From contig NW_001915051.1 in NCBI RefSeq assembly GCF_000208925.1, positions 3,051-26,445 on the forward strand: a DNA stretch of 23,395 nt, written 5' to 3'. The position numbers and the translations under genes were made by a program. The notes under the pieces were generated by a model, which did no database searches, was not told the DNA's origin, and saw nothing but the letters and a program-made list of their open reading frames with translations. Positions 3,756 to 21,068 of the stretch are shown here, piece by piece. This DNA comes from Entamoeba histolytica HM-1:IMSS. Lineage: Eukaryota > Evosea > Mastigamoebida > Endamoebidae. Numbering within the stretch: the first letter of the stretch is position 1; each line of letters opens with the position of its first letter.

Positions 3756-5776
3756 TCATATCAAGGGATCAACAAATTCATTTTTATTTTCTTGGTTTGT
3801 TGGTTCAATTGTTACTTGATTTTCTTTTACTTCATTAATTAAATTTTCATTGGATTTGTCATCTTTAATTATTTCTGGTGGAATTTGTTTTTCTTCTTTG
3901 TCATCAGTTTCAATTGTTGGTTTATTAATTTCTTCATTTTTCTGTTGGTTCAGATGAATCTGAATTGGTTGTTGTTTAGATTCTTTAGATTCTGATTTGA
4001 TTATTACTTTTTCATTATATGACTTTCTTAATGAACTTTGTGGAATTGCTGGTAATTCTTTTGCATATGACTCTATTTTTAAATCTCCATTAAATTCTTC
4101 AATTGTTCTAACATCTGGAGTTCTACATGGTGATAATATTGATGTACTACTTGCTTTAGAACCACCAAGAGAAATAGGAGAAGGAGAACCTGTAACTGAT
4201 ACCTTACATAATTCATTCATTTTATTACGATACCACCAAACATTAAAATGTTGGCTTCCAATAAATTCTTTAATAAATTGTTTATGTGATTCATGTTTAA
4301 TAATTTGAGGAAATCCTTGTTGGAATTGTGGTAGATCAATTGGTCCTTTAGAAATACAATAATTACGAACAAAACTTAATAATTTATCATATAAATGATG
4401 TTTAATCTTTTGTTGAACATCAGAACTAAATGAAACTAATTTTTGTTGAGGAATATTTTCAAGAGCACGTTCTCTTTCATTAAAAGTTTTAAATTTAATT
4501 ATATCAGCAAAAGTAGCTTGAACACAACTACCAAGTGCAGAAGATAATTCAGCAGCAAATGGTAAAGCATGACGAATAACTGGATTTGTTTTTATAATTC
4601 TTTTTTCAAGAGTAGGATCAAATACACTTCCTTGTTCAAGTTGAATGACATCTGCCATGACACGAGTAATATCTTTCGGGATTTCAGTTCCATATAAACT
4701 AGGAACAGGAGATTCTAAGAATTCTTGTAATTGAACAGGAACAAATGGAATTAAAACACCTTGCCAAATAAAAGGATATAATAATGTTAATAACCCAAAT
4801 ACTGAACTAGTAATAAGTGATGCATTATTACCAACTAAAATGACAGAATTACCACTTAATAATGATGATAATGCACTTAATATAACTGGTATTTGAACTC
4901 CAACAAATAATCGAGGTAATGCATAATCTGCAATCATTTGTAAACAACATGCTGCCTGTTTATCTCCAGGTGCAAGAGAATCATATAAACAAGAACGATA
5001 AAATGTTCTTGTTGGAGCAGGTGGAATTGTTATAGAAAATGAATATTCTTTTAAATCAGGTGCTTCAACTGCTAAAACTTTATTTAAATAATCAATCATT
5101 CGTGATTTACTTGAAACATATTTTTCAGAAGGATTTCCACCATTTCTGAGATAAAATGCTTTAATATAATTGTTTTTAGAATGAAAATCCAATATTTCCA
5201 TATCTTCTAACATTGAAAATAATGCATTAATATGAGGACATTCACTAACAAAGCAATAAATTCTATCAACAACAATTGGATTGGCTCCAATTGTATATAT
5301 TTTTTGAATAACAGTTTCTTCAATAAAATCACTAGGAAATTGTAATAACTCTTTTCTTACAATACAAACACCTGAAATAATTAAAATTTCTTTTCTTTTT
5401 CTTCTTTTTATCTTTTTTATTTAAATAAAAAAAAAGAATCTTTTAACAAACAGAACGATGTTGATGTTTCTCCTGGAAGAATTAATAAATATTTTTTTGG
5501 TGCTTCAAGAAGAACATTAAGTTTATTTGTTTGTGTTGCTGTAACTCCTTGTGGTGCAATAAATTTAGAAAAGTGTTCTTGAAGATCAGCTTGTGGTGGA
5601 TAACAAAAAAGTTTTTGGGCATCATAAGTGTATGACTTCCTCCAAAAACTAAATTCATCAGTTTTAAAATTTGAAGGAAGTCCCCATATAGAAAATGATG
5701 ATACAAGATTCGATGATGTCAAAGTAATTGCTCTTTCTAATGGAGATGAACAAATATCACTAAGAGGAGCACTCAT
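3756..5776 (-). CDS. DENN-domain protein, probable Rab guanine-nucleotide exchange factor (spliced)
   Basis: Exon 1 is 5776-5452 and exon 2 is 5371-3756, joined across an 80-bp intron to give 646 residues. The central DENN core (about residues 260-340) carries the family hallmark: SLLSGNSVILVG, a hydrophobic helix, then LLYPFIWQGVLIPFVP and SPVPSLYG. An upstream-DENN-like part fills residues 1-200 (IWGLPSNF and similar segments), and a helical downstream-DENN-like part lies near 425-495, with FIKEFIGSQHF. From about 505 to the end the chain is low-complexity, first Ser/Pro-rich and then Lys/Glu/Asn/Gln-rich, and probably disordered. DENN proteins catalyse GDP release from Rab GTPases during membrane traffic; the Rab partner cannot be told from sequence. 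An annotation starting at the internal ATG at 5213 would lose the first 161 residues. Confidence 0.85.
5372..5451 (-). other. Intron, 80 bp
   Basis: On the minus strand it starts GTTTGTTAAA at 5451 and ends TTATTTCAG at 5372, with a long T/A-rich interior. The exons join as TTC-T|GT-GTT (Phe-Cys-Val) and keep the frame through to the DENN core. Reading straight through would stop within 11 codons. Confidence 0.85.
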
Positions 5777-7323: not shown

Positions 7324-10300
7324 ATGAAACCAAATTTTATAAATTTATTTGCGATTGACCAAAAGTTAACAAATACAGGAACTGTAAGTTGTCCACGAAA
7401 AATGTCTCTTCATCGAACATTTTCACCAAATCAATCACAAACCCAATTAGGGTCATCATTAAAAAAATCAAATCCATATTCTATTATCTTTAATGCTGCA
7501 AAAGGAATTAATGAAGAATTTAAAAAATCACATAATGAAGGAGAAGAACAAAACTTATCACCATCACTTGCTGATGATGCATTTCTTGAAATTCATAGAT
7601 CAACAAAATGGATAACAAATGAAAGAAAAGTAGCAGCTGAAAAAATTAATTCAGCATTAAAATTAAGAAAAAAATATCAATATGTAGAAGTACCAAAATT
7701 AATAAATTCAATTAATCATAGATATCTTACAAAAGAAGGAATTAGTGTATTTCCAGTACATTATTCTGATGGAATTATTCCAATAGAATTACCAAAAAAT
7801 GATACAACAATATATTATGAACAAAAAGATGGAGTATTTCTAGTAAAATTAAAAGAAAATCAAGAAAATATATTTACACCTATTACTTTAACAGAATTTA
7901 TTGAAGATTATAAAGAAATATTAAGAATAATTGATAGTGGACCAGCAAAAACATTTTCAATGGAAAGAATGCAAGAAATGCATCATCAATTTGAATTACA
8001 TAAAATCTTTTCATTTGATAAAACAAATACTGGAAAAGATTTTTTTTCAGCAGGAAAAGTCGACACACATATTCATGCGGATAGTTGTTTTACAGAAAAA
8101 GAATTATTTAGATATATAAAAAGTAAATACGAAAATAAAGAAATAGTTCATGAAATAATAAATAAAGAAGGAAAAAAAGAAAAAGAAACATTAAAAGATA
8201 TGTGTAAAAGAAAAGACATTAATATAAATAAATTAACATTACATAAAATTGGAGTAAAAATATATAATTATGATAGATATAAAGAAGATGATTTACGTAC
8301 TGTATTTTTAAATATAAATAATATTATGGAAGGTGAATATTTTGCTGATTTAGTTAAAACAGAAATGAAACATTTAGAATTAACAAATTGTTATTTTGAA
8401 TTAAGATTAAGTATTAATGGTAAAAATGAAAATGAATGGAATTTATTATCTCAATGGGCAAAAAAATGGAATGTTAATTCAACTCATAATAAATGGATTA
8501 TTCAATTTCCTAAAAGATTTGTTGAAATTAAAGGAGATAATACATTATTTACATATTCTAATTTTCTTTCAAATTTATTTAAACCATTATTTGAAGTATC
8601 ACAAAATCCACAAAATAATGAAATATTAGCAAATTTCTTAGAAAAAGTTTCAGGATTTGATCTTGTTGGAGATGAAAATGAAATTGAACAAATCATTGGT
8701 TCAGATACTTTTAATCCTACAAATTGGAATAAATCAGTTAATCCATCATATTTTATTTATATGTATTATTTATATGCAAATATTGTTTCTTTAAATATTT
8801 ATCGTATGTCTAGAGGATTAAGTACTTTTGATTTTAGACCTCATTGTGGTGAAACTGGTCATTATTCTCATCTTGCTGCTGCTTTTTTAACTGTTAAAGG
8901 AATTTCTCATGGAATTAAATTAACTGATTCTCCAACATTAAAATATCTTTATTTATTAACTCAAATTGGTATTACAATGTCTCCAATGGCAAATCATTTA
9001 ACTCAATGTCAATATAATCAAAATCCTTTTAATAATTTCTTTAAACGTGGATTAAATGTTACTTTATCATCTGATGAACCTCTTCAAATTCATAGAACTC
9101 AAGAACCTTTAATGGAAGAATTTGCTATGGCACAACAAACATGGAAATTTGAAGATGTTGATTTAGTTGAAATGTGTAATAATTCAATTAAACAAAGTGG
9201 ATTTTCATTAATGAAAAAGACTACATTATTTGGAAATAAAAATGATGTTCTGATAAATGGAAGATCATTATTTAGAAATAGATTACTTGATACTGAATTT
9301 GCTATTATTAAAGCTTTAATTACTGATAACTCAAATAAAATTTTTGGTGATATTCCTGCAACAACTATTGATTTAAATTATAAAACAAAAGATCCAAAAG
9401 AAATTGATGTTATGAAAAAAATTACTTATTGGATGTTAGTTAGAGAAAAATATTTTGCAGAAAATTTACCTCAAGTTATGAATGATTCTATTCAATTAAA
9501 TAATCCTACAACTCCTCAATTATTTTGTGCTATGTCTAATGGAATTTATAATATTTATAATACTCCTGATGCAATTTGTGATATTGATCATTATCATAAT
9601 GCTTTTGTTTATTGTTTTGATTGTAGAAAAAATTATTGTAAACATTGTTTTAAAGAAGCTCATAAAGACCAATATCATTCTATTAGAAGAACTAAACATT
9701 TATCATATTATCCAATTATTGAATTTTCAGAATATATTAATGATTATAATGACCTTGTTAGATTTAGTACTGATGGTCCTTCAAGAACTTTTTGTTATAA
9801 ACAATTACATTCTCGAGAACAACTCTTTATTCTTCATAAAATTCTTAATAACTCATTAGAAAGTCAAGAAATTAAAAAATTACCTATTGACTTTGAAAGA
9901 AGTACTAAAGTTGATACTGTTGTTGCTGCTTCTAGGTCATTTCATCCTAGAGATCTTCTTATGCTAATTTGGGATAAATTAAAAGAAGATGGAGATAGAG
10001 TTGTATTTCCTGAAATATCAATAAAAACTGAGTCAGGTACAAGAGTTTATAAACATGTTACATTAAGAAATGCATTTTCTATTTATCAAATTAAAGACTT
10101 TTCATTAGACAATTTGTCAGTAACATTTGATCCATCATTAATTCAAAGGTATGATTTATGGGATTCAAGAAATACTATTTTTAATGTAAAAGAATTAAGA
10201 GACTTATTTTTAACAACTACTAACAGTGTGGGTGGTACTTATTTTTGTGAATTCTTAAAGAAAACAAGATTTGATCAAGTTGAAGAACAACCTAATCAAA

Positions 10301-11307
10301 AAACTGAAATGCATATGTGTCTTTATGGTAGAAGAATGAATGAAATTGAAGATATTGCTAAAGTTATTGTTAAAAATGGATTAATTTGTCCTGAAAAAAA
10401 TAATTTTAGCATTCAATTACCTAGAAAATATGCAATGATTAAAAAAGAAGGAAATGTTAATACTTTTGAAGAATTATTACGTCATATGTTTGAACCATTA
10501 TTTGATGCAACATTAAATCCAGAAAAACACCCTGAACTTGTTACTTTTCTTGAAAATGTTGGTGCATTTGATTGTAAAGGAGATGAATCTGAATTTGAAG
10601 GAAAAATATCATTATCCTCATTACCTGTTCCAGCAAAATGGGATTCATATAAAGAACCTCCATTTGCTTATTGGATTTATTATGTTTATACTAATGTCCA
10701 TGTATTAAATAATTTAAGAAGAACATTACAAATGAATACTTTTGATTTTAAACCTCATTGTGGTGAAACTGGAGATCCAATGCATAATGCTGCTGCATTT
10801 TTAACTGCTGATGCTATTTCTCATGGTATTACATTAGATAAACAAAATACATTACAATATTTATTTATTCTTGCTCAAATTGGTATTTCTTGTTGTCCAA
10901 TTTATGATAAATTTTTATATGATATTATTGAACATCCTTTTTATAAATATTTTATGCGTGGAATGCTTGTTACTTTAGCTACTGATTCACCTATGCATAC
11001 TCACACTACTAAAGAACCTCTTGTTGAAGAATATGCTTCTGCAATTAAAATATTTAAATTAACTGCTTCTGACATTGCTGAAATTGCTCAAAATTCTTTA
11101 CTTATTTCTTCATTCTCTGAAGATACAAAACAAAATTGTTTAACAACTGAAGAAGGTGAAAATTCAAGTGTTCCTCAAACTCGGCTTCAATTTAGAGCAA
11201 AAATTTCTAAATTGGATTTTGATACTTTACTTAAATTTAATATCGGTAGATCAAATTTAACTGAAAAAGAACAAGATATCATTTTACAAGCATCAATGCA
11301 TCTCTAA
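7324..11307 (+). CDS. Tandem-module AMP deaminase with B-box-like zinc motif
   Basis: The protein has 1327 residues in a single exon, much longer than a usual AMP deaminase because the catalytic region occurs twice. AMP deaminase converts AMP to IMP and ammonia in the purine nucleotide cycle. Module 1 (about 110-650) carries the family signatures: DGVFLVKL, SGPAKTFS, KVDTHIHA (metal ligands H249 and H251), RPHCGET (H507, E510), ISHG (H529) and LSSDEPLQ (D584). Module 2 (about 735-1270) aligns along its length and keeps PHCGET (H1145, E1148) and ISHG (H1167). Its HxH is replaced (KVDTVVAAS; V866, A868) and its Asp motif reads ATDSP, so it should not bind the metal normally. Between them, residues 752-785 have C/H spacing typical of a B-box zinc finger. 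In module 1 the second Asp of the usual STDDP motif is Glu (E585). No membrane segment is seen, so it is probably cytosolic. Confidence 0.9.
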   Translation: MKPNFINLFAIDQKLTNTGTVSCPRKMSLHRTFSPNQSQTQLGSSLKKSNPYSIIFNAAKGINEEFKKSHNEGEEQNLSPSLADDAFLEIHRSTKWITNERKVAAEKINSALKLRKKYQYVEVPKLINSINHRYLTKEGISVFPVHYSDGIIPIELPKNDTTIYYEQKDGVFLVKLKENQENIFTPITLTEFIEDYKEILRIIDSGPAKTFSMERMQEMHHQFELHKIFSFDKTNTGKDFFSAGKVDTHIHADSCFTEKELFRYIKSKYENKEIVHEIINKEGKKEKETLKDMCKRKDININKLTLHKIGVKIYNYDRYKEDDLRTVFLNINNIMEGEYFADLVKTEMKHLELTNCYFELRLSINGKNENEWNLLSQWAKKWNVNSTHNKWIIQFPKRFVEIKGDNTLFTYSNFLSNLFKPLFEVSQNPQNNEILANFLEKVSGFDLVGDENEIEQIIGSDTFNPTNWNKSVNPSYFIYMYYLYANIVSLNIYRMSRGLSTFDFRPHCGETGHYSHLAAAFLTVKGISHGIKLTDSPTLKYLYLLTQIGITMSPMANHLTQCQYNQNPFNNFFKRGLNVTLSSDEPLQIHRTQEPLMEEFAMAQQTWKFEDVDLVEMCNNSIKQSGFSLMKKTTLFGNKNDVLINGRSLFRNRLLDTEFAIIKALITDNSNKIFGDIPATTIDLNYKTKDPKEIDVMKKITYWMLVREKYFAENLPQVMNDSIQLNNPTTPQLFCAMSNGIYNIYNTPDAICDIDHYHNAFVYCFDCRKNYCKHCFKEAHKDQYHSIRRTKHLSYYPIIEFSEYINDYNDLVRFSTDGPSRTFCYKQLHSREQLFILHKILNNSLESQEIKKLPIDFERSTKVDTVVAASRSFHPRDLLMLIWDKLKEDGDRVVFPEISIKTESGTRVYKHVTLRNAFSIYQIKDFSLDNLSVTFDPSLIQRYDLWDSRNTIFNVKELRDLFLTTTNSVGGTYFCEFLKKTRFDQVEEQPNQKTEMHMCLYGRRMNEIEDIAKVIVKNGLICPEKNNFSIQLPRKYAMIKKEGNVNTFEELLRHMFEPLFDATLNPEKHPELVTFLENVGAFDCKGDESEFEGKISLSSLPVPAKWDSYKEPPFAYWIYYVYTNVHVLNNLRRTLQMNTFDFKPHCGETGDPMHNAAAFLTADAISHGITLDKQNTLQYLFILAQIGISCCPIYDKFLYDIIEHPFYKYFMRGMLVTLATDSPMHTHTTKEPLVEEYASAIKIFKLTASDIAEIAQNSLLISSFSEDTKQNCLTTEEGENSSVPQTRLQFRAKISKLDFDTLLKFNIGRSNLTEKEQDIILQASMHL

Positions 11308-11609: not shown

Positions 11610-12014
11610 ATGGCTGAAGCACTTTTTAAAGAAATTGATGTTAATGGAGATGGAGCTGTCTCTTATGAAGAAGTTAAAGCTTTTGTTTCAAAGAAGAGAG
11701 CAATTAAGAATGAACAACTTCTTCAATTAATTTTCAAATCTATTGATGCTGATGGAAATGGAGAAATTGATCAAAATGAATTTGCTAAATTCTATGGATC
11801 AATTCAAGGACAAGATCTTTCTGATGATAAGATTGGATTGAAAGTACTCTATAAACTTATGGATGTTGATGGAGATGGAAAATTAACTAAAGAAGAAGTT
11901 ACTTCATTCTTTAAAAAGCATGGTATTGAAAAGGTTGCTGAACAAGTTATGAAAGCTGATGCTAATGGTGATGGATATATCACACTTGAAGAATTCCTTG
12001 AGTTTTCACTCTAA
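11610..12014 (+). CDS. CaBP1: Calcium-binding protein 1, four EF-hands
   Basis: The protein has 134 residues, and I recognise its length and sequence as Entamoeba CaBP1. Four complete EF-hand loops are visible: residues 10-21 ([12 protein letters not shown]), 46-57 ([12 protein letters not shown]), 85-96 ([12 protein letters not shown]) and 117-128 ([12 protein letters not shown]). Each has acidic residues at positions 1, 3, 5 and 12 or the usual substitutes, so all four should bind calcium. It is shorter than calmodulin (about 148 residues), mainly at the N-terminus and linker. From the literature, EhCaBP1 is a cytosolic calcium sensor that binds actin and is recruited to forming phagocytic cups, where it is needed for phagocytosis and pinocytosis. 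Codons include more AAG, TTC and ATC than neighbouring genes, consistent with good expression. Single exon; converges on the next gene with 83 bases between stops. Confidence 0.95.
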
Positions 12015-16973: not shown

Positions 16974-19900
16974 TTAGTTCTTACTATTCTGAATTTTTTC
17001 TAGCATTCTTACAATTTCATCTATCGTTATTCTTTCTTTTGGTTCTTGTTGCCATGACTTTTCAATAATTTCTTTTATATCTTCTTCTACTTCTTGTATT
17101 ATGTTTGGTCGTTTACCTGTTGTGATTGTGTCTGCTATTAGCCATGGATGTGGATATAATGTTTTAGGAAATGGATCTTGCCATGTAATGATTTGTAACA
17201 TTGTTATTGAAAATGAATATATATCTGATTGCATTTTGTAATGTTCTCGATTTAATACTTCTGGTGCCATGTATTTTGGTGTTCCTATTCCTTTTGTGAA
17301 TGTCATATTTGTCATCATCATATTAATATTTCTTGCACTTCCAAAATCAGTTAATTTACAATTAACTTCAATGTTATCATCAAGTGATACAACAAGGAAA
17401 TTATCTGGTTTAATATCTCGATGTAATATTCCATTTGAATGAAGATATGAAATTCCTTTTGCTCCATCTATCATAAATTTGATTCGTATTTTCTTTGATA
17501 TTTCTGTGATGTTTCTTTTATTCATTATATCTTGTATTGACCCATATTTTGCATATTCCGTTACCATACATATTTTATTAGGAATAAATACTGCTCCATA
17601 AAAATGAATAATATATTCATCTCGAAATTTATCTAACATTGCTACTTCTTTCTCAAATTCTTTCTTTTTATCTTCACTTTCTTCAACTTGTTTCATTTTC
17701 TTAATTGCTACTTTATTTCCTCTAAATTCTCCAACATAAACAATTCCAAATGATCCTTCTCCTATTTTCTTTTCTTCTTTTATTTCATCAGGATCAAGTC
17801 GTGTTGATATTTCTGTTTCTCCTTCAATAGAAATACTTTTGATTGTTTCTTCTTGTGCTTTATTAAGTGTTTTACTAATTATCATTATTTTATCTTTGAT
17901 TTTAGTTGTACATTTGATTGTAATGAATAATTCAAATTCACATGCATATCCTCCTTCAATTGTAATGACATTTGGGTTTGTTCTAATTGAATATTTCTCA
18001 TTTTCTTCTTTACTACTTATTTGTATCTTCATCTTCTCTTTTTTATCATTTCCAATACAAATTAATTCTCGTATTTCTTCATTCACTTTAATTTCTTCTC
18101 CTTCTTGAAGTTCAATTTCTTTCTTATTTGTTAATATTCCATCTCCAAGTGATATGAATCTAATATTTGATTGTGTTATTTTGAATATTGTTGTTGTTTT
18201 CTCTCGTTCTTTCTTTTCTTTTCTCTTCATTATGTAATTAACCATCATTATTATCATTACAATTGTTATAATAATGATAATAACTATAATAATGACAATT
18301 ATCATTATCATCCACCATACTACTTCTTTATTACATTCATTTCCTTCTTCATTCGTTCCATACCAAAATGAACATTTCCAACATTTATTATTCTTTACTT
18401 CTTTACATTTATTAATATCTAAATAGTAAATACATTCTTTATTTTTTAATATATATTCATCTCTACAACTATTACATTCATTCTTTATTGAACATCTTGT
18501 ACAATTCTCTTTACATTTTGAACATTCTTTATTTATTAAATAATATCCTTCTGAACATTCTCTACATCCATATTCTTTATCTATTTCTCCTTTACATCCT
18601 TTAATTTCTGTTGTTAGTTTACATTCTCCTATCCAACTCATGAAATATCCATCTGCACATGTTATACATTTATCTTTTTGATTACATGTTGCACATTTTT
18701 CTTCACATTCTGAACATCCTTTCCCATTTCTATAATATCCTTTCTTACATATTCCACACCCACTTCCATCTGCTAATAATTGTAAACATGTTCCATTTAA
18801 TTCGTTATTTGATTGACATGTTCTATTACTACTTAAATATTTATCACTAGAACAACTCATACAATATGTAGATGAACCATAACATGTTGTACAATTATCA
18901 TCACATTTTGAACATTTCATATTTGTTGTTAAATAATATCCATCTGAACATCGTTTACATCCATATGTATTTTGTTCTTCACAATTTTCTATTGTTGTAT
19001 TAATACATTCTCCTTTTGAATCAGGTGAATATGTTGTTAAACATTCAACACATTTTCCATTAACATATAACTCATTTGAACAATTTGAAATATTGGAATT
19101 ACATTTTCCATTTTGATCTTTTATCTTTCCTTCTTCACATGTTTTATTTATACATGTATTATTATCTAATTGTTGGTTATTTTTACATTTTAATTTAATA
19201 CCATCTGAATTACATATTGCTGATTCTGTACATTCTATACATGTATTATCCTTGATGTATTTTCCATTTTCACAATATATTTCTTCATTCTTTCCATTTT
19301 TATTTTCTTTACTTCCACATTTTCCATTATTTAATGTATATTCATTTGAACATGAAACACATTCATTTCCTTCATAATAACATTCTTTTTCTTTATCTTT
19401 AACACATGTATTATTTTCTATTTTATATCCATTTGAACATTTTAAACAATAATTCCTTTCTGACTTCTTACAATTATTCATTTCTTGACATTCTCCATTT
19501 TCATTGACATATCCTTCTCCACATTGATAACAATGTGTTTCATTTCCAATTTTACATCCACTCGGATTTTTAGTACATACTTGTATTGAATTAAGATAAT
19601 ATCCATATGCACATTCAATACAATGGTTTTGATTATTTAATTTAATACAACGTGAATTTTTTTGACATTTATTGTTTGAATTAAGAGAATATCCATTTTT
19701 ACATTTAATACATTTAAATTCTTCATTTGATTTACCAGTTAAAATAATACAATTTGGAAATGGATCAATTAGTATTATATTTTCATCAATTGTCATAATA
19801 TTATTATTACCTTTACCTTTAATAGTTAGTGTTGTTGGTGTAGAAGAAGCAGTGAAATAATAAATACAATCACTAACAAAAGAATTACAAGTGAGATTAC

Positions 19901-21068
19901 CATTTATAATTAAATTGAATGGTGTATTTGATGGATTTGATAAATGTTTTATGTGGTTACTTCCATCAATTTCTAATGTATTTGTTTCTGAATTGTATTT
20001 AAATTGTGATCTAATACTTGGTTTTCTAATATTCGTAATTTCAAAATTATTAAATTTTATCATTTGTTTGTACTCGTTGATTAATGTAAGTGAACCTATT
20101 TTTAATAGAACATTATCATCAACACTAATTTGTTTAGCATACTCAAAGTTAAATAATGTAATTTCATGGTCAATATGAAGAATTGTATTGCTGATATTAA
20201 CTATGTTAAAATTTACTGATTCTAAACTTGATTGAATATTAAGAATACATTCAGTTCTATTATCATCACATGGACAATGTGGATAATTAAATATATAATC
20301 ACCTCTTCCTGAATATGATGATGGTGAATAAGTCATATCATTTAGTGTACAAATAACAGTTTTATTCAATTTAATTCCATTTGGACAAAATCTCATTAAT
20401 TTCTTGTTTGATAGTAAATATGCTTTACCAAATCTCATACTAAGTCCTTTATCAAAGTCTTTTGGTAAATAATGATTATCTGATTTTTTATCAAAATCAA
20501 GTGCATTGTTATTATTAAATGACATCACATCAAAACATTGTTTATTACCACCTGGATTTATAATTTCAAATCCTTTATATGTTGGTGTTGTAGTTGTTTT
20601 GTAAAGATGTATCCAATTACTATTCCAAATAATTAATTGAGGTTGATTTAATGATGGAGTTGTTTTAAATTTAACTAGTTGTTGAAATGAAAGACTGCCA
20701 TACCACATCACCTTTGAATTAGCCCCAAAAATAAATTCAGTGTTTGATTCTAAATTAGCATGAAATTCAATTTGAGAGTTTTCTAAAAACTCTACAGTAG
20801 ACACATTTATCCAATAATTTCCTGTATTTATTATAGATAAACTACCCTCGAAAGTCATACTTTTACAACTTATGACATTTGTTGAAAAAGTATAATCATG
20901 TTTAAAAAGATATGAGTAGTTTTTTATTTTATCAAACTCCTTACATTGGAATTGCGTTTTTCGAGTCTGACTGTTAAATTCAACAATACAGTCTGAATTA
21001 GTTGTAATACAATCATATTCCTTACCAATAACATAGTTGACAATCAATAATATATCAATTAATAACAT
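16974..21068 (-). CDS. Transmembrane kinase with CxxC-repeat ectodomain (Entamoeba TMK family)
   Basis: The protein has 1364 residues and one exon. A signal peptide (1-15) is followed by a large extracellular part. Residues 16-437 are beta-rich with scattered cysteines, and residues 440-912 hold many repeats of the type CxxC-x(n)-GYY...C, as in Entamoeba intermediate-lectin-like and TMK ectodomains. Many N-x-S/T sites are present. One membrane helix (about 917-945, almost all Ile, Met, Val) is followed by a basic KRKEKKER stop-transfer. Residues 965-1085 look like a beta-sandwich. The kinase domain (about 1096-1357) is complete: GEGSFG (1103-1108), AIKK (K1123), HRDIKPDN (D1218, N1223), DFG (D1241) and APE (1268-1270). 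It is tyrosine-kinase-like in style but carries the HRDIKPDN loop typical of serine/threonine kinases. TMKs act in surface sensing, serum response and phagocytosis. The ligand is unknown, and I do not assign a subgroup firmly. Confidence 0.93.
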   Translation of the reverse strand: MLLIDILLIVNYVIGKEYDCITTNSDCIVEFNSQTRKTQFQCKEFDKIKNYSYLFKHDYTFSTNVISCKSMTFEGSLSIINTGNYWINVSTVEFLENSQIEFHANLESNTEFIFGANSKVMWYGSLSFQQLVKFKTTPSLNQPQLIIWNSNWIHLYKTTTTPTYKGFEIINPGGNKQCFDVMSFNNNNALDFDKKSDNHYLPKDFDKGLSMRFGKAYLLSNKKLMRFCPNGIKLNKTVICTLNDMTYSPSSYSGRGDYIFNYPHCPCDDNRTECILNIQSSLESVNFNIVNISNTILHIDHEITLFNFEYAKQISVDDNVLLKIGSLTLINEYKQMIKFNNFEITNIRKPSIRSQFKYNSETNTLEIDGSNHIKHLSNPSNTPFNLIINGNLTCNSFVSDCIYYFTASSTPTTLTIKGKGNNNIMTIDENIILIDPFPNCIILTGKSNEEFKCIKCKNGYSLNSNNKCQKNSRCIKLNNQNHCIECAYGYYLNSIQVCTKNPSGCKIGNETHCYQCGEGYVNENGECQEMNNCKKSERNYCLKCSNGYKIENNTCVKDKEKECYYEGNECVSCSNEYTLNNGKCGSKENKNGKNEEIYCENGKYIKDNTCIECTESAICNSDGIKLKCKNNQQLDNNTCINKTCEEGKIKDQNGKCNSNISNCSNELYVNGKCVECLTTYSPDSKGECINTTIENCEEQNTYGCKRCSDGYYLTTNMKCSKCDDNCTTCYGSSTYCMSCSSDKYLSSNRTCQSNNELNGTCLQLLADGSGCGICKKGYYRNGKGCSECEEKCATCNQKDKCITCADGYFMSWIGECKLTTEIKGCKGEIDKEYGCRECSEGYYLINKECSKCKENCTRCSIKNECNSCRDEYILKNKECIYYLDINKCKEVKNNKCWKCSFWYGTNEEGNECNKEVVWWMIMIIVIIIVIIIIITIVMIIMMVNYIMKRKEKKEREKTTTIFKITQSNIRFISLGDGILTNKKEIELQEGEEIKVNEEIRELICIGNDKKEKMKIQISSKEENEKYSIRTNPNVITIEGGYACEFELFITIKCTTKIKDKIMIISKTLNKAQEETIKSISIEGETEISTRLDPDEIKEEKKIGEGSFGIVYVGEFRGNKVAIKKMKQVEESEDKKKEFEKEVAMLDKFRDEYIIHFYGAVFIPNKICMVTEYAKYGSIQDIMNKRNITEISKKIRIKFMIDGAKGISYLHSNGILHRDIKPDNFLVVSLDDNIEVNCKLTDFGSARNINMMMTNMTFTKGIGTPKYMAPEVLNREHYKMQSDIYSFSITMLQIITWQDPFPKTLYPHPWLIADTITTGKRPNIIQEVEEDIKEIIEKSWQQEPKERITIDEIVRMLEKIQNSKN

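What the first reader, a model, noticed from the sequence alone, without database searches (positions are those of the whole stretch)
7324..11307. AMP deaminase with two tandem catalytic modules, the second missing its metal-binding HxH
Seen: both halves carry AMP-deaminase landmarks in the same order. In module 1 the HIH motif is intact, while in module 2 it reads VVA (V866-A868) and the Asp motif is ATDSP. HCGET and ISHG persist in both. Known: in the adenosine/AMP deaminase superfamily the two His of HxH, the His of HCGE and the Asp of STDDP hold the metal. Inference: module 2 is a pseudoenzyme kept for nucleotide sensing, allostery or an internal dimer mimic, since AMP deaminases normally act as oligomers. 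An active enzyme fused to a degenerate copy would be an unusual control design.
Basis: partly seen in the sequence, partly recalled or inferred. Interest (0 to 1): 0.75.

Follow-up and report, generated by a model that had tools for sequence, protein, structure and literature searches.

The report
Double AMP deaminase, both halves altered
This Entamoeba gene encodes two fused copies of an AMP-processing enzyme; the second copy has lost its metal grip and the first has lost part of its AMP pocket, while most related fused proteins found keep one working-looking copy, so this one looks like a protein kept for something other than ordinary AMP breakdown.

Summary
In detail: one uninterrupted 1327-aa frame (7324-11307, +) holds two AMP-deaminase modules; M1 keeps HIH, M2 reads VVA (866-868) and ATDSP. 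M2 looks like a pseudoenzyme half, and Val at the first metal His is shared by orthologues in E. invadens and E. marina. But M1 is not a normal AMP deaminase either: STDDP reads SSDEP, and much of the AMP-holding loop is missing. The fusion itself is not odd: of 110 tandem AMP deaminases among the listed search hits, 98 have exactly one module with all seven catalytic residues (38 first, 60 second); 11 have neither intact, six of them this Entamoeba line. In this line the metal-less M2 is the better conserved half in 10 of 10 pairs, against 1 of 666 pairs of tandems with an intact M1. The same genome holds a paralogue with an intact M1. Best reading: a duplicated copy that gave up AMP deamination and is kept mainly for its M2 half, as a binding or regulatory subunit. 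No activity was measured.

The parts
7324..11307 (+). Tandem AMP-deaminase-like gene, 1327 aa plus stop
   Evidence: Pfam PF19326 two stretches
7324..7575 (+). N-terminal extension, aa 1-84, poorly conserved
   Evidence: alignment A1
7576..9306 (+). Module 1 (aa 85-661): AMP-deaminase fold, zinc site intact, AMP pocket altered
8062..8076 (+). M1 DTHIH (aa 247-251), two metal His H249 and H251 present
8260..8292 (+). M1 shortened AMP loop (aa 313-323, IYNYDRYKEDD) where animal, plant and Dictyostelium enzymes read RFDKFNxKYNPxGxS
8836..8853 (+). M1 RPHCGE (aa 505-510): metal His H507, catalytic Glu E510 present
8902..8913 (+). M1 ISHG (aa 527-530): catalytic His H529 present
9067..9081 (+). M1 SSDEP (aa 582-586): metal Asp D584 present, substrate Asp replaced by E585
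9307..11304 (+). Module 2 (aa 662-1327): AMP-deaminase fold without the HxH metal ligands
9577..9678 (+). B-box-like Cys/His motif (aa 752-785) in the N-terminal part of module 2; below Pfam cut-offs
9913..9927 (+). M2 DTVVA (aa 864-868) in place of DTHxH; Val at 866 in 5 of 5 line-B rows compared
10135..10185 (+). M2 AMP-loop region (aa 938-954), full length but substituted (L945, W946, R949, N950)
10750..10767 (+). M2 KPHCGE (aa 1143-1148): H1145 and E1148 retained
10813..10827 (+). M2 AISHG (aa 1164-1168): H1167 retained
10978..10992 (+). M2 ATDSP (aa 1219-1223): D1221 retained, substrate Asp replaced by S1222

Best explanation
The gene is the divergent paralogue (here 'line B') of an old tandem AMP deaminase. 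In its relatives M1 keeps every catalytic residue and M2 is already altered but mostly keeps its zinc ligands (shown for line A and other tandem rows). After the whole gene duplicated inside Entamoeba, line B lost the HxH of M2 and, in the rows from E. histolytica/nuttalli and E. invadens, the substrate Asp and the AMP loop of M1; E. marina has the first change but not the second, which suggests that order. I infer that the line-B protein no longer deaminates AMP at a useful rate and that selection now holds mainly its M2 half, as a non-catalytic subunit: most likely it pairs or competes with the line-A AMP deaminase of the same cell through the shared AMP-deaminase surface, or binds a nucleotide in the metal-free M2 pocket (H1145, E1148, H1167, D1221 kept), thereby tuning AMP-to-IMP flow. 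Partner and ligand are guesses by analogy with the catalytically dead paralogues that activate two trypanosomatid enzymes.
Against: M1 keeps all four metal ligands plus catalytic Glu and His, so some hydrolase activity is possible. Loop residues K169 and K173 are also changed in otherwise canonical M1s (V or L, and S, in line A), so the loop alone does not prove loss of AMP use. Asp->Glu is conservative. E. marina P0004 keeps SSDDP and the loop in M1; it counts as altered only for an odd HxH stretch that may be mis-annotated. No evidence for a physical partner, ligand or expression. The 10 line-B pairs come from 5 rows of 3 species and are not independent; the P0005-P0006 difference is small (68.3 vs 69.9%).
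Confidence: 0.58

Rival explanations
1. One reading: M1 is an active AMP deaminase and M2 an internal regulatory pseudoenzyme that senses nucleotides or mimics the second subunit of a dimer.
For: M1 zinc site, catalytic Glu and His intact; 38 of 110 tandems have a canonical M1 and a broken M2; the line-A paralogue is of this kind.
Against: E585 and the shortened AMP loop in M1; Lys at the same site in E. invadens P0003; M1 is the less conserved half in line B.
Confidence: 0.15
2. Substrate switch: M1 is still a zinc deaminase but for another adenine compound. The second-Asp position is where the CRISPR protein TaqCad1 carries Asn and acts on ATP with little adenosine activity.
For: Metal ligands, E510 and H529 kept; PMC12669630 (section 8 and passages read): TaqCad1 has Asn at the mouse Asp296 position, shows no adenosine deamination by UV and weak by mass spectrometry, and has an activated ATP deamination.
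Against: The residue is not held within line B (E, K, K, K, and D in E. marina), and two E. invadens copies have lost Glu and His as well; M1 is under weaker constraint. In TaqCad1 reverting both substituted residues raised but did not rescue adenosine activity, so the position is not the sole switch.
Confidence: 0.17
3. Decay: line B is a redundant copy on its way to becoming a pseudogene.
For: Catalytic residues lost in both halves; the line-A paralogue could cover the function.
Against: 1327-aa open frame; orthologues in E. nuttalli, E. invadens and E. marina, extra copies in E. invadens; M2 65.2-71.9% identical among P0001, P0003 and P0004 and one metal His changed to the same residue in 5 of 5 rows.
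Confidence: 0.1

Closest known systems
AMP deaminase family (PF19326 / TIGR01429; solved: Arabidopsis 2a3l, human AMPD2 8hu6)
   Same: Fold and order of motifs in both halves
   Different: Two modules in one chain; M2 lacks HxH and second Asp; M1 lacks second Asp and has a shortened AMP loop; each half alone falls below the TIGR01429 equivalog cut-off
Tandem AMP deaminases with intact first module (Entamoeba line A, Pelomyxa, Planoprotostelium and others)
   Same: Same two-module layout; M2 altered; B-box-like motif in several
   Different: They keep a canonical M1 and many keep the M2 zinc ligands
Tandem AMP deaminases of trypanosomatids and Diplonema
   Same: One canonical and one broken module in one chain
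   Different: Reversed order: broken first, canonical second; separate branches of the tree
Catalytically dead paralogues in trypanosomatids (AdoMetDC prozyme, DHSp)
   Same: Maintained pseudoenzyme derived from the enzyme itself
   Different: Separate subunits of other enzymes, with measured activation; nothing measured here
CRISPR-associated ADA-fold protein Cad1
   Same: ADA fold with a changed Asp next to the metal Asp

Membership tests
AMP deaminase (structural family) | Match to PF19326 over the cut-off in each half | tested here: met
   436.9 and 423.4 bits, cut-off 27
AMP deaminase (structural family) | AMP-deaminase fold by model comparison | tested here: met
AMP deaminase (functional equivalog) | TIGR01429 equivalog cut-off 726.3 bits by one half | tested here: not met
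   431.1 (aa 1-700) and 412.9 (aa 701-1327); the whole protein passes at 834.1 with two stretches. The canonical line-A M1 also fails (557.2), so this cut-off is not decisive
AMP deaminase (functional equivalog) | HxH + His + Asp metal site in at least one module | tested here: met
   M1: H249, H251, H507, D584. M2 lacks it: V866, A868
AMP deaminase (functional equivalog) | Substrate Asp of STDDP and AMP loop KFNxKYNP | tested here: not met
   M1 E585 and shortened loop; M2 S1222 and substituted loop
AMP deaminase (functional equivalog) | AMP to IMP activity | not testable with these tools
   no assay
Tandem one-canonical-one-broken AMP deaminase | Exactly one module with all seven catalytic residues | tested here: not met
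   both altered; 98 of 110 collected tandems meet it
Prozyme-type regulatory pseudoenzyme | Physical complex with and regulation of the active paralogue | not testable with these tools
   line-A paralogue exists in the genome, no interaction data
B-box zinc finger | Pfam cut-off | tested here: not met
   PF22586 23.3 (cut-off 27), PF00643 18.3 (24.1). Weak hits at the same place in 5 of 7 other tandems scanned (P0003, P0004, P0008, P0011, P0122; none in P0010, P0012)

The most novel reading that the evidence does not exclude
Eukaryotes built fused 'prozymes' for AMP deaminase at least twice, in opposite order (one in the lineage of Entamoeba and its relatives, one in that of trypanosomes and diplonemids); Entamoeba then duplicated the fusion and stripped AMP catalysis from one copy altogether, so that the metal-free half became the selected part: a trans-acting regulator or nucleotide sensor for the remaining AMP deaminase, possibly used in early encystation.
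Probability: 0.3. Interest if true: 0.8.

Novelty: new variant of a known kind. Interest (0 to 1): 0.6.

Why it matters
AMP deaminase drains the adenylate pool, and how protists control it is little known. A recurrent fusion of one intact and one broken module, seen also in trypanosomes and Leishmania, would be a natural test bed for how pseudoenzyme halves control their partners. The Entamoeba line B is the informative exception: catalysis appears lost while the metal-free half stays conserved, so a non-catalytic role can be tested apart from chemistry. It also warns that whole-protein family scoring can pass an equivalog cut-off by adding two halves that each fail it.

Tried and rejected
Misassembly or two transcripts: argued against by the open frame and by two-module proteins listed for three other Entamoeba species; no transcript data were seen. 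Chance motif match: rejected. Decay of M2 alone: argued against by its conservation. Module interface: the 1200-aa model has pTM 0.77, but coordinates could not be read, so whether M1-M2 mimics the AMP-deaminase dimer is untested. Literature: ten searches; none of the rows listed is a report of tandem or pseudoenzyme AMP deaminases, judged by title and start of abstract; some searches held more papers than were listed and the library holds open-licence papers only, so this is not proof of absence. Which E. invadens genes rise at encystation could not be checked (no supplement look-ups). Root and number of origins of the broken modules: the two large trees are quick, midpoint-rooted and have long branches. 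P0004 M1 HxH stretch: possibly a mis-predicted intron; no DNA at hand. In the whole-module Fisher tests line A is not significant (p 0.24, 0.35), the line-B pairs and two other tandem pairs are, in opposite directions. Dropped rows: P0008 left out of the active-broken pair count as a near copy of L002A; 68 of 1770 broken-active pairs left out for over 90% identity or short overlap; 3 of 113 long proteins did not split into two modules. One helper column, labelled E(RLSIYG), was mis-indexed and not used.

Full report
What is there. The frame 7324-11307 (+) encodes 1327 aa without interruption. Pfam finds PF19326 AMP_deaminase in two stretches; each half alone scores far above the cut-off and matches the solved AMP deaminases 2a3l and AMPD2. 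The next gene, 11610-12014, encodes a protein identical over 134 aa to the calcium-binding protein 1jfj (that this is EhCaBP1 of E. histolytica is recalled), so the source is E. histolytica or a very close relative.

Not an artefact, not unique. A 99% identical protein is listed for E. nuttalli, and 58% and 57% identical ones for E. invadens and E. marina, all two-module. The window's own genome (16.95 Mb, 392 contigs) gives one more match, a 1261-aa tandem paralogue at L002 (the tool calls its counts lower bounds). I call the L002/P0007/P0008/P0009 group line A and the focal/P0002/P0003/P0004/P0005/P0006 group line B; the trees separate them in both modules.

Active sites. Positions follow the description of the Arabidopsis-based AMP pocket in PMC3042610 (passages read) and were read off an alignment to 211 single-module AMP deaminases (filled in 205-211 of them). 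Focal M2: H97->V866, H99->A868, D445->S1222, with H1145, E1148, H1167 and D1221 kept. Focal M1: metal ligands, catalytic Glu and catalytic His kept, but D445->E585 (Asp in 206 of 207 singles filled there; the corresponding Asp296 of ADA contacts N7 of the substrate, PMC12388660, one passage read), and the AMP loop is shortened. The H97-to-R183 stretch is 76 residues in the focal M1, 71 in P0003, 66 in P0005 and P0006, against 90 in line A and a median of 85 in singles (5th percentile 84, minimum 62). P0004 (E. marina) also counts 76, but there the loop is present and the gap lies at the HxH. Against over-reading the loop: line-A M1s have V or L and S where K169 and K173 should be, yet have all seven catalytic residues.

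The wider family. Three protein searches (each lists at most 120 hits, and one search had 3625) together with L002 gave 113 proteins of 1050 aa or more, of which 110 split into two modules. Two of the three queries were alignments of tandem proteins, so these are not natural frequencies. Taking seven catalytic residues (HxH, His, Glu, His, Asp, Asp), 38 of 110 have a canonical first and a broken second module, 60 the reverse, 1 (P0247) both canonical, 11 both altered. The 11 are the six line-B rows (P0004 only by its odd HxH stretch), P0124, P0125, P0288, P0304 and P0265 (whose M1 start looks truncated). Rows with names in the reverse order include Trypanosoma, Leishmania, Strigomonas, Phytomonas, Angomonas and Diplonema; in the first order Entamoeba line A, Pelomyxa, Planoprotostelium and Amoebophrya, and labels that I read from memory as Mastigamoeba (m51a1) and Physarum (Phypoly). 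P0124, P0125, P0288 and P0304 have also lost the AMP loop, in their second module (68-69 residues): a second group in which loss of catalytic residues goes with loss of that loop.

History. In a careful tree of 35 rows (14 tandems, 7 singles) the M2s form one side of a branch (91/90; 95% of 200 bootstrap trees), while the M1s need two changes (one change in 20% of bootstraps), the Entamoeba M1s standing apart from the other M1s. So one tandem origin for this set is likely but not proven. M2 changed early: among the 38 active-broken rows the substrate Asp of M2 is replaced or gapped in 37 and the catalytic Glu in 29. In line B the HxH of M2 is gone in all five rows compared (three species), including E. 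marina, whose M1 still has SSDDP and the loop; this suggests that M2's metal ligands went before M1's pocket.

Constraint. Comparing the same species pairs, line A keeps M1 better than M2 (78.4 vs 71.7%; 71.0 vs 61.9%), line B the reverse (56.0 vs 68.6%; 55.8 vs 71.9%). Across active-broken tandems M1 is the more alike half in 665 of 666 pairs, across broken-active tandems M2 in 1702 of 1702 counted, and in line B M2 in 10 of 10; in the four other both-broken rows the once-canonical M2 is still the more alike half in 6 of 6. In general, then, the canonical or once-canonical half is the conserved one; line B, where it is the half without HxH, departs from this. Fisher tests on whole modules give p of 3e-6 to 1e-10 for three line-B pairs; two line-A pairs are not significant (0.24, 0.35), and two other tandem pairs go the other way (0.004, 6e-6).

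Annotation. Each half alone misses the TIGR01429 equivalog cut-off of 726.3 (431.1 and 412.9); the whole protein passes at 834.1 with two stretches. The line-A M1 misses it too (557.2), and a Dictyostelium AMP deaminase passes at 1070.6, so the cut-off is strict, not diagnostic.

Function. That a dead copy can be kept as an activator of its live relative is established for T. brucei AdoMetDC and trypanosomatid DHS (abstracts). PMC12669630 (section 8 read) reports from earlier work that Asp296->Asn in mouse ADA severely impairs binding and catalysis, and that TaqCad1, with Asn there, has little adenosine activity but an activated ATP deamination. Hence two live options for line B: a non-catalytic subunit (preferred, from the constraint pattern) or a switched substrate in M1. 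In E. invadens, PF00962 domains are enriched among genes up at 8 h of encystation (4 of 10), as are B-box domains (3 of 15) (PMC4053983, Table 4 in part 1 of section 10 read); that these are the same tandem genes is my inference.

Shown: sequence, homology, residue losses, conservation contrast, predicted fold. Inferred: loss of AMP activity, role of M2, partner, ligand, link to encystation.

Noticed in passing
   Followed up: partly
P0124, P0125, P0288, P0304: A second group has both modules altered and the AMP loop deleted from the module that is canonical in its nearest relatives in the tree.
   Followed up: partly
P0247: The only one of 110 tandems with both modules canonical; its two modules are each other's nearest relatives in the quick tree, suggesting a separate duplication.
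   Followed up: no
M2 rows of active-broken tandems: Where the substrate Asp became N/S/A/T/C, the Asn of SPLSN is often Glu, Asp or Gln: an acidic group may have moved across the pocket.
   Followed up: no
window 9577-9678: B-box-like Cys/His motif inside the N-terminal part of module 2; weak hits at the same place in 5 of 7 other tandems scanned, below Pfam cut-offs.
   Followed up: partly
P0014: Tandem AMP deaminase labelled as from an archaeal MAG groups with eukaryote tandem sequences in the tree; probably eukaryotic contamination of the MAG.
   Followed up: no
window 11610-12014: Gene for a four-EF-hand calcium-binding protein identical to 1jfj, about 300 bases downstream of the focal gene.
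   Followed up: partly
window 16974-21068 (-): Large cysteine-rich protein with a C-terminal protein kinase domain.
   Followed up: no
window 3756-5213 (-): DENN-domain protein.
   Followed up: no
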